From assembly GCF_036345155.1 (NCBI RefSeq), contig NZ_CP107772.1, forward strand, positions 7,626,001 to 7,690,000: a DNA stretch of 64,000 nucleotides. The letters are read 5' to 3'. The position numbers were made by a program, and so were the translations under genes. The notes beneath the pieces are model-generated. The model ran no database searches and was not told the origin of the DNA. It saw only the letters and a program-made list of their open reading frames with translations. Positions within the stretch are counted from its first letter, which is position 1, and every line of letters starts with the position of its first letter. The stretch comes from Streptomyces sp. NBC_00582 (GTDB lineage Bacteria > Actinomycetota > Actinomycetes > Streptomycetales > Streptomycetaceae). Positions 32,471 to 34,547 of the stretch are shown here, in pieces.

Positions 32471-33697
32471 ATGCCTCTGGCCCTGCTCGCCCTCGCCGTG
32501 GGTGCCTTCGGCATCGGCACCACCGAGTTCGTGATGATGGGACTGCTGCCCGACGTGGCGGCAGACCTGCACCTCTCCCTGCCCACCGCCGGACACCTCG
32601 TCTCCGCGTACGCCCTCGGTGTCGTCATCGGCGCGCCGCTGCTCGCGGCGGCGACCGCACGGATGCGGCGCCGCACGCTGCTGATGTCCCTGATGGCCCT
32701 CTTCGTGGCGGGCAACGCCCTGTCGGCGCTCGCCCCCGGCTACGACTGGCTGCTCGCGGCCCGCTTCCTCAGCGGACTGCCGCACGGCGCCTTCTTCGGC
32801 GTCGGCGCCGTCGTCGCCACCCACCTGGTCGCGCCGGAACGCAAGGCACGCTCGGTGTCGCTGATGTTCCTCGGCCTGACGGTCGCCAACATCGCGGGCG
32901 TCCCCGCCGCCACCCTCATGGGCCAGCACCTGGGCTGGCGGGCGACCTTCCTCGGTGTGAGCACGATTGGCCTGGCGGCGATGGCGGCTCTCGCGCTGCT
33001 CGTCCCGCGCGAGGTGACGGGCGCCCCCGCCGCGGGCCTGCGCGGCGAACTCGCGGCCCTGAGGTCCCTCCCGGTCTGGCTGGCGCTCGGCACCACGGTC
33101 GCGGGCTTCGGCGCGCTGTTCTCCGCGTACAGCTACATCACCCCGATGCTGACCGACGCGGCAGGCTACGCCGACGGGAGCGTCACGCTGCTCCTCGCCC
33201 TGTTCGGCGTCGGCGCGACGATCGGCAACCTGCTGGGCGGCCGCCTCACCGACCACGCGATGCGGCGCACCCTGTTCGGCGGCCTGGCGTCCCTGGCGGT
33301 CGTCCTCGCCGCCTTCCCCCTGCTGATGCGCACCCAGTGGAGCGGCGCCCTCGCGGTCGTCCTCCTCGGCGTCGCGGCCTTCGTCGCGGGCACCCCCCTC
33401 AACCTGATGGTCATGGAGAAGGCCGTCACCGCGCCCTCCCTGGCCTCCTCCGCCAACCAGGCCGCCTTCAACCTCGCCAACGCCGGAGGCGCCTGGATCG
33501 GCGGCCTGGCCCTGGCGGCGGGCCTCGGCGTCACCTCCCCGGCCCTGGCCGGCGCCGCCCTCGCGGTCCTGGGACTGGCGGTGGCGGGCGTGGCGTACGC
33601 CGTGGACCGCCGCAGGGCGTCCGCCGACGGCACCCGTCACGAGCGGATCGTGGCGACCCACGTCCCGACGCGGACGGAGCCCGCGGTACGCCACTGA
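32471..33697 (+). CDS. DHA1 MFS efflux transporter (AraJ/Cml-like)
   Basis: A 408-residue, twelve-helix exporter starting MPLALLALAVGAFGIGTTEF, typical of the AraJ/chloramphenicol-exporter group. It has the motifs LPHGAFFGVGAVVA and APERKARSVSLMFLGLTVAN. In the 123-base leader there is a possible six-codon ORF (32434-32454, M-D-A-S-P-T), 16 bases before the start, and a weak dyad around CGTCGTTAAACATACGATG. The substrate is unknown; chloramphenicol-like drugs or sugars are possible for the family. Confidence 0.9.
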   Translation: MPLALLALAVGAFGIGTTEFVMMGLLPDVAADLHLSLPTAGHLVSAYALGVVIGAPLLAAATARMRRRTLLMSLMALFVAGNALSALAPGYDWLLAARFLSGLPHGAFFGVGAVVATHLVAPERKARSVSLMFLGLTVANIAGVPAATLMGQHLGWRATFLGVSTIGLAAMAALALLVPREVTGAPAAGLRGELAALRSLPVWLALGTTVAGFGALFSAYSYITPMLTDAAGYADGSVTLLLALFGVGATIGNLLGGRLTDHAMRRTLFGGLASLAVVLAAFPLLMRTQWSGALAVVLLGVAAFVAGTPLNLMVMEKAVTAPSLASSANQAAFNLANAGGAWIGGLALAAGLGVTSPALAGAALAVLGLAVAGVAYAVDRRRASADGTRHERIVATHVPTRTEPAVRH

Positions 33698-33730
33698 CCC
33701 CGACCACGGCTCCGGGGGACGGCTGGGGCC

Positions 33731-33770
33731 CCTCTGACGGATCTCCGCGCGTCGGAGATCCGTCAGGAGG
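33731..33770 (+). terminator. Hairpin terminator after the MFS gene
   Basis: A 17-bp inverted repeat with one bulged base: TGACGGATCTCCG on the left and CGGAGATCCGTCA on the right, around a five-base CGCGT loop. It lies 34 bases after the MFS stop and just before the CTAG-flanked inverted-repeat element. Confidence 0.85.
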
Positions 33771-33773
33771 GCC

Positions 33774-33942
33774 CTAGGGGGTGTTTCGAAAGTCCCGCAC
33801 AGCACCCGCGGCGCCCGGCACGTACTCGCGCCGCACCGGCCGAAACCCCAAGTACGCCCAGTACGAGGGCTTTCCTCCGGCACGCCGAGAGCACGCACCG
33901 GACACCGCGGGCACCGCACAGGACTTTCGAAACACCCCCTAG
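33774..33942. mobile_element. CTAG-flanked 161-bp inverted-repeat (MITE-like) element
   Basis: A non-coding element at 33778-33938 bounded by CTAG on both sides (33774-33777 and 33939-33942), which may be a 4-bp target duplication. The outer 18 bp (GGGGTGTTTCGAAAGTCC) are perfect inverted repeats, and imperfect symmetry extends to at least 68 bp per arm. I count 17 differences in 68 positions. Thirteen are transitions, all C in the left arm against T, or A against G, in the reverse-complemented right arm. No transposase is encoded. The right-hand CTAG supplies the stop codon of the neighbouring acetyltransferase gene. Confidence 0.75.
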
Positions 33943-34478
33943 AGGGCGGTCGGCTTCCACTCCTCGGCGAGGAGGCCGAGCAGCACGTCGTCCAGGAACT
34001 CGCCCATCACCCAGGCCGAGGAGCGCAGCACGCCCTCACGGACGAAGCCGTTGCGCTCGGCGGAGCGGAGCATCGCGTGGTTGTCCGCCAACGTCTCGAT
34101 CCGCAGCCGGTGCAGGCCCCGCACGACGAAGCCGTAGTGGCACAGCACCGCGACCGCGTCGGTGCCGTACCCCTTGCCGCGCGCGGACGGCAGCAGCCCC
34201 AACCCGATGTGCGCGGACCGGTGGTGGGTGTCGATGCCCCACAGTGTCGCGGTGCCGATCAGCGTGCCGCCGTCCAGCTCCACCACGGAGAACGGGACGA
34301 CCGCGTGGTCGGTGTCGTCCACGACGAGCCGCGGGTCCTTCGAGCCGGGCGAGACGGGCCGCCACGGCCGGCCCTCGGCCCGCGAGCCGCCGACCACGTC
34401 GTCGTAGAGCTCGGCCGGCAGGACCGGGATGTCCTCGTCGTGCCGGGCCCGCAGCCCGACCTTGTCACCCTTCAGCAT
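33939..34478 (-). CDS. GNAT family N-acetyltransferase (RimJ/RimL-like)
   Basis: A 179-residue acetyl-CoA-dependent acetyltransferase. The GNAT fold is recognisable from GTLIGTATLWGID, HIGLGLLPSARGKGYGTDA (the acetyl-CoA pyrophosphate loop) and RIETLADNHAMLRSAERNGF, as in RimJ/RimL proteins. The start at 34478 is backed by AGGAAG; a 12-codon upstream extension is unlikely. The TAG stop lies in the terminal CTAG of the inverted-repeat element, so the last codons may have been altered by that insertion. The substrate is unknown. Confidence 0.87.
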   Translation of the reverse strand: MLKGDKVGLRARHDEDIPVLPAELYDDVVGGSRAEGRPWRPVSPGSKDPRLVVDDTDHAVVPFSVVELDGGTLIGTATLWGIDTHHRSAHIGLGLLPSARGKGYGTDAVAVLCHYGFVVRGLHRLRIETLADNHAMLRSAERNGFVREGVLRSSAWVMGEFLDDVLLGLLAEEWKPTAL

Positions 34479-34547
34479 GCAGGCTTCCTGTCCGACCGGG
34501 CCGACGCGCCGCAAACGAACAGCGGGCCGGCCGGTCGGGGCGGGCGG

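What the first reader, a model, noticed from the sequence alone, without database searches (positions are those of the whole stretch)
33774..33942. CTAG-flanked inverted-repeat element with one-sided divergence between its arms
The sequence shows a 161-bp non-coding element with 18-bp perfect terminal repeats, symmetry extending to about 68 bp per arm, and CTAG on both sides. Of 17 arm differences I count, 13 are transitions, and all have the same polarity: C in the left arm against T, or A against G, in the reverse-complemented right arm. Every one keeps G-U pairing in a minus-strand RNA hairpin and breaks pairing in a plus-strand RNA. Equivalently, all 13 are G-to-A changes on the plus strand. 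The other four, near the loop, are transversions. Either the minus-strand RNA fold is selected (the element is the 3' end of the acetyltransferase mRNA), or cytosines were deaminated on one strand only, for instance while single-stranded. CTAG as a target duplication would fit an IS5-type helper; that is inference.
Basis: partly seen in the sequence, partly recalled or inferred. Interest (0 to 1): 0.8.

Follow-up and report, generated by a model that had tools for sequence, protein, structure and literature searches.

The report
Streptomyces MITEs with one-strand hairpin core
The element is one copy of a large family of tiny non-coding jumping elements found in Streptomyces; nearly all examined keep a hairpin that folds best on one DNA strand and tend to sit in one orientation relative to the chromosome's arms, which suggests that the fold helps the element spread rather than serving the gene next to it.

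Summary
In detail: 161 bp between two CTAGs (33774-33942), 18-bp perfect ends, 17 arm differences in 68 bp, 13 of them transitions of one polarity. It is a mobile MITE: 18 near-full copies in the same genome; related sequence in 101 of 150 sampled genus genomes, own included. CTAG fits a target duplication; Streptomyces IS5-family elements share it, and one matches one end of two sister elements over 17 bp. End sequences vary between families, while a ~100-bp core is conserved and covaries (0/500 shuffles): G-U pairs total 1546 on one strand, 39 on the other, in 175 distinct elements. A chromosome-arm bias appears (90 of 131, p=2e-5) that IS5 copies lack (26 against 29), with the origin assumed at mid-contig. 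Best reading: the one-strand hairpin is maintained in the propagating lineage, perhaps as single-stranded DNA at forks; RNA and survivor bias remain open.

The parts
33774..33777 (.). left CTAG target copy, shared with the neighbouring mini-element
33778..33795 (+). left 18-bp terminal inverted repeat
33778..33938 (-). MITE, 161 bp; folding (G-U) strand is the minus strand
33805..33910 (-). conserved hairpin core (model R1 match, C1:7659805-7659910)
33921..33938 (-). right 18-bp terminal inverted repeat
33939..33942 (.). right CTAG target copy; read on the minus strand it supplies the TAG stop codon of the acetyltransferase
33727..33773 (.). adjacent core-less mini-element of another end family

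Best explanation
A non-autonomous mini-transposon (MITE), most likely of the IS5 kind. Shown: 18-bp terminal repeats, CTAG on both sides, many copies, no gene inside. Inferred: it is moved in trans by a CTAG-specific IS5-family transposase (the exact helper for these ends was not found). The inner ~100 bp is a core shared by MITE families with different ends. It is kept, by compensatory change, as a hairpin of one strand only: the window's minus strand, with G-U/G-T wobbles, a G-G mismatch (26 of 29 cores) and an apical GG followed by A or G. Because resident copies decay without regard to the fold, while the lineages that multiply keep it, the fold is needed for propagation or survival of the element and not for the neighbouring gene. 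The arm-orientation bias without transcript bias makes a single-stranded DNA hairpin at replication forks the likeliest form in which it acts (inferred).
For: Copies. CTAG on both sides in 93 of 170 scored elements, and within one base of CTAG on both sides in 128 of 170. Empty-target analogue: 47 of 80 acetyltransferase homologues end in a CTAG stop. IS5 elements with CTAG on both sides: 6 of 45 loci and 18 of 30 loci (one IS in both sets); IS5 family by NCBIfam NF033580 above cut-off. One end of MITEs L417 and L357 matches the IS L318 end over 17 of 17 bases. Covariation. Polarity: 174 of 175 distinct elements fold better on this strand. No selection at resident copies. Arm bias 90 of 131 (p=2.2e-5), also at convergent sites (40 of 53); IS5 control 26 against 29, the two differing at Fisher p 0.008.
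Against: No IS with exactly GGGGTGTTTCGAAAGTCC ends was found in 75 partly overlapping IS loci, nor beside the sites of that end outside the own genome. Only 84 of 170 elements have ends of the IS-like form GNNNTGT; 31 have TGCCGCG ends, for which I found no IS. The origin was taken as the contig midpoint, not located. Genome G007 shows the opposite orientation for all 6 copies. The IS control is small and comes from other genomes than the MITEs. RNA and DNA folds cannot be told apart by sequence. Some loci were found with a model that already knows this fold.
Confidence: 0.65

Rival explanations
1. Survivor bias: the better-folding strand on the lagging-strand template is deleted by hairpin slippage, so copies with the weaker strand there remain. 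The fold itself is only a relic of a palindromic ancestor.
For: The folding strand points toward the chromosome middle in 90 of 131 copies, so the weaker strand is mostly the lagging template; as DNA the two strands differ by 22 kcal/mol. Core-less deletion forms exist in the same genome, five with one shared junction.
Against: The bias is similar in near-identical (young) copies, 60 of 89, and diverged ones, 30 of 42. Nine deletion forms that I could orient by eye are 6 toward, 3 away, not the reverse (small number). Compensatory changes across families need selection for pairing.
Confidence: 0.4
2. The minus-strand RNA of the element has a trans function for the element (regulatory RNA, protection of a transcript, or guide-like partner), so RNA pairing is selected in master copies.
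For: G-U pairs are better tolerated in RNA (recalled); the apical GG is invariant in 29 cores while its closing stem covaries; fold z -17.5 as RNA.
Against: No Rfam family reaches its gathering score (best MIR918, 57.2 against 268). No sense bias to genes. Does not explain the arm bias at divergent sites (11 against 3), which should lie outside both neighbouring mRNAs.
Confidence: 0.3
3. A transcription terminator or mRNA 3' stabiliser selected at each insertion site.
For: Excess of convergent sites: 53 convergent, 50 tandem, 14 divergent, 14 unclear of 131; the stop codon of the acetyltransferase is the TAG of CTAG.
Against: 21 sense against 29 antisense in tandem contexts; changes in resident copies not constrained. 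CTAG stop codons could explain the 3'-end preference by target choice.
Confidence: 0.08
4. One-strand cytosine deamination of a perfect palindrome.
For: All 13 transitions fit G-to-A on the plus strand.
Against: Same polarity across end families, with compensatory pairs and invariant wobble positions; 0 of 30 stem changes in the 18 copies are C-to-T on that strand.
Confidence: 0.02

Closest known systems
IS5 family insertion sequences of the PF13340+PF01609 type (NCBIfam NF033580); the IS427-group name is recalled
   Same: CTAG on both sides; ends often of the form GNNNTGT; one IS end identical over 17 bp to one end of two sister MITEs
   Different: no transposase; long structured core; exact helper of the window's ends not found
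Correia, ERIC, QMITE2 and other bacterial MITEs (review PMC10969869, passages seen)
   Same: terminal repeats, target duplication, stable stem-loop transcripts, intergenic
   Different: here the core, not the ends, is conserved across families, with strict strand polarity; the listing counts no 'Streptomyces' in that review
REP sequences with GTAG or CGTC tags (PMC3733652, search listing and start of abstract only)
   Same: palindromic extragenic repeats; strand-specific fold (recalled)
   Different: 161 bp with 18-bp terminal repeats and CTAG on both sides; no Y1/RAYT-type link tested
Integron attC sites and IS200/IS605 hairpins (recalled)
   Same: work as one-strand folded DNA, linked to replication (what this may work like)
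   Different: those use tyrosine recombinases or Y1 transposases and lack terminal repeats with CTAG duplication; not filed as a member

Membership tests
MITE | short, non-coding, multi-copy, terminal inverted repeats | tested here: met
   161 bp, 18-bp repeats, 18 near-full copies in own genome
MITE | direct target duplication of a pre-existing single site | tested here: inconclusive
   CTAG on both sides in 93 of 170; a CTAG stop at 47 of 80 homologous gene ends; tandem elements share one CTAG (L030; window 33774). No same-locus empty site was available.
MITE of IS5 family | ends and target shared with an autonomous IS5 element | tested here: inconclusive
   Class yes: CTAG plus matching end design, one IS end identical over 17 bp to sister MITEs. 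Exact ends of the window's family: none found
MITE of IS5 family | mobilised by the transposase in trans | not testable with these tools
   needs an assay
Rfam RNA family | score at or above gathering threshold | tested here: not met
Intrinsic terminator | orientation tied to the upstream gene | tested here: not met
   21 sense, 29 antisense
attC or IS200/IS605 hairpin | tyrosine recombinase or Y1 transposase partner, no target duplication | not tested
   only argued against by the terminal repeats and CTAG

The most novel reading that the evidence does not exclude
A cut-and-paste (DDE) mini-transposon lineage whose spread depends on a strand-specific single-stranded DNA hairpin made at replication forks. 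The hairpin core is passed between or retained by families with different ends, G-T wobbles being tolerated on the folding strand while keeping the double-stranded DNA from being a perfect, unstable palindrome.
Probability: 0.25. Interest if true: 0.85.

Novelty: new variant of a known kind. Interest (0 to 1): 0.6.

Why it matters
MITEs are usually seen as an IS with its middle lost: ends conserved, interior passive (recalled). Here the interior is the conserved part, across families whose ends have changed, and its strand polarity and arm bias point to a step in MITE spread or survival that reads single strands. It would also give Streptomyces, heavily used for drug discovery, a genus-wide mobile hairpin family that I did not find described (searches; open-licence papers only).

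Tried and rejected
Helper search in the own genome by PF01609 and PF13359 first gave no IS with these ends; CTAG-flanked IS5 copies L079/L080 were recognised later. Plasmid and viral searches for the end sequence gave nothing useful; no phage match. An empty site through gene synteny failed: only 1 of 80 homologue loci carries the neighbouring transporter gene, so stop-codon contexts were used instead (one search had read the wrong stop in most loci). Considered and disfavoured: terminator at the site, deamination, known Rfam RNA (see rivals). The end decay of CTAG (CCAG before or CTGG after the element 25 times, the reverse 10 times) leans toward very-short-patch-type repair, which is recalled and untested. 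The arm count was repeated without the central 16% of each contig (83 against 39).

Full report
What is there. The element sits between the 3' ends of a major-facilitator transporter gene (32471-33697, +) and a GNAT acetyltransferase gene (33939-34514, -), whose stop codon TAG is part of the right CTAG. The minus strand folds at -140.1 kcal/mol as RNA (z -17.5) and -72.6 as DNA; the plus strand at -92.4 and -50.1.

It is mobile. Eighteen near-full copies (95-100%) and partial ones lie in the same genome, as do short forms: about 40-60 bp deletion forms and one that is only the two ends. A DNA search met related sequence in 101 of 150 genomes of the genus, own included. A covariance model of the core matched 70 times in the own genome, which I merged to 41 places where both strands matched. 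It matched 21 of 296 genomes of the class, 18 of them of the genus (own included) and the other three weak (stricter filters), and 11 of 12 chosen genomes of the genus, none in G323 at the cut-off used. Plasmid records add Kitasatospora and Embleya.

Ends differ, the core does not. The elements have at least a dozen kinds of end (for example GGGGTGTTTCGAAAGTCC, TGCCGCGGCAGGCAACGTTT, GCCGTGTCTGACAATTCCCG, GGCCTGTCGTCAAACTCCCG, GGGGTGTCTGGTGGATCTCC) around one core. Of 175 distinct elements 170 could be scored for ends: 93 have CTAG on both sides, 128 have it on at least one side, and 128 are within one base of CTAG on both sides. The scoring gave a bonus to CTAG, so these counts are somewhat favoured. 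Ends of the form GNNNTGT: 84; TGCCGCG-type: 31; TTCTG-type: 13; other: 42.

Target and helper. Homologues of the acetyltransferase end in a CTAG stop in 47 of 80 loci; two of these (L186, L201) carry other, core-less palindromic elements at that CTAG. These are homologues in other places, not the same locus. Two elements side by side share one CTAG, as at window 33774 and in L030. Streptomyces IS5-family elements of the PF13340/PF01609 type (NCBIfam NF033580 above cut-off) show CTAG on both sides: 6 of 45 loci, including two copies of one 1106-bp IS in the own genome, and 18 of 30 loci of a second search (L323 is L318 again, and CTAG was favoured in scoring). The IS end of L318, GCCGTGTCCGCAAAGTC, is identical over 17 bases to one end of each of the core-bearing elements L417 and L357. 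No IS with exactly the window's ends was found. The 22-base pattern CTAG plus those ends occurs 32 times in 3 of 150 genomes, 25 of them in the own genome; the 7 sites in the other two genomes belong to MITEs or remnants. For the TGCCGCG ends I found no IS with like ends.

The fold is kept on one strand. On 29 diverse cores (of 47 distinct ones then in hand; 13 own-genome near-duplicates and 5 odd or interrupted cores left out), 98.1% of cells pair, 9 pairs show change on both sides, and 0 of 500 shuffles reach the observed values. Folded on the other strand the same alignment gives -27.9 instead of -79.6 kcal/mol. Over 175 distinct elements this strand folds better in 174, with 1546 G-U pairs against 39. 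The exceptions are L021, a truncated copy that folds slightly better on the other strand, and the distant L156, with 3 G-U pairs on each strand. Two adjacent wobbles are invariant in all 29 (columns 14-93, 15-92), a G-G mismatch is kept in 26 of 29, and the apical GG, followed by A or G, is kept while its closing stem covaries.

But resident copies do not keep it. Among the 18 near-full own copies, 30 stem changes against their consensus (some shared by several copies; gaps and loop changes set aside) turn Watson-Crick into mismatch 22 times and into G-U twice; on the other strand the numbers are 19 and 5. None is C-to-T on the minus strand, 4 are G-to-A. So the polarity is neither renewed by deamination nor guarded at each site; it belongs to the lineages that multiply.

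Which single strand? If host mRNA were the level of action, the folding strand should lie in sense of genes. In 50 tandem contexts it is sense 21, antisense 29 (p 0.32); of 131 copies 53 lie between convergent genes, 50 tandem, 14 divergent, 14 unclear (a first count on a partly overlapping set gave 14 against 21 among 77). Gene directions were called from third-position G+C, not from annotation. Relative to chromosome arms there is a bias: the folding strand reads toward the contig middle in 90 of 131 (p 2.2e-5), in 40 of 53 at convergent, 11 of 14 at divergent and 32 of 50 at tandem sites. The 131 are the copies I held as loci from 17 genomes, about half from the own genome and G402; a count by all listed positions of 14 genomes gave 98 of 145, and 69 of 104 without the own genome. 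G007 is against it with 0 of 6, and G040 and G049 are even. IS5-type copies in 15 other genomes (55 rows of a capped list) show none, 26 against 29 (Fisher p 0.008 against the MITEs). Young copies (60 of 89) and old ones (30 of 42) show it alike. With forks moving outward, the folding strand is then mostly the leading-strand template. The origin was assumed at the contig midpoint.

Conclusion. A MITE, most likely of the IS5 kind (anatomy shown; movement by an IS5 transposase inferred), with a conserved one-strand hairpin core. I think the fold acts in propagation or early survival, most likely as single-stranded DNA at replication forks; an RNA acting in trans and a deletion-survivor effect remain open. 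Literature: searches gave no description of this family; one MITE review was read in passages (PMC10969869), the others only as listings.

Noticed in passing
window 33723-33777: A 47-bp core-less palindromic element (33727-33773, arms match 19 of 21), like the GGCCCTTCTGACGGATCTCC end family and preceded by CTGG, abuts the finding and shares its left CTAG.
   Followed up: partly
L063, L067, L068, L070, L072: Five short forms in the own genome share one deletion junction, at what reads as a GCGG microhomology: either a mobile mini-element of ~53 bp or repeated hairpin slippage.
   Followed up: partly
ends of many copies (for example L010, L068, L069, L071): The flanking CTAG decays more often to CCAG before and CTGG after the element (25) than the reverse (10), the direction expected from very-short-patch-type repair of CTWGG (recalled, untested).
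   Followed up: partly
L019, L024, L041, L257: Cores are joined to or interrupted by another Streptomyces repeat, CCCCCACTCTCGGCTTCGCTCGAGCGGGGG.
   Followed up: no
L089, L090, L091: A ~982-bp IS with ends CTAGACGAGTAGTTCCGA has three copies in the own genome, two of them within 40 kb of the two chromosome ends.
   Followed up: no
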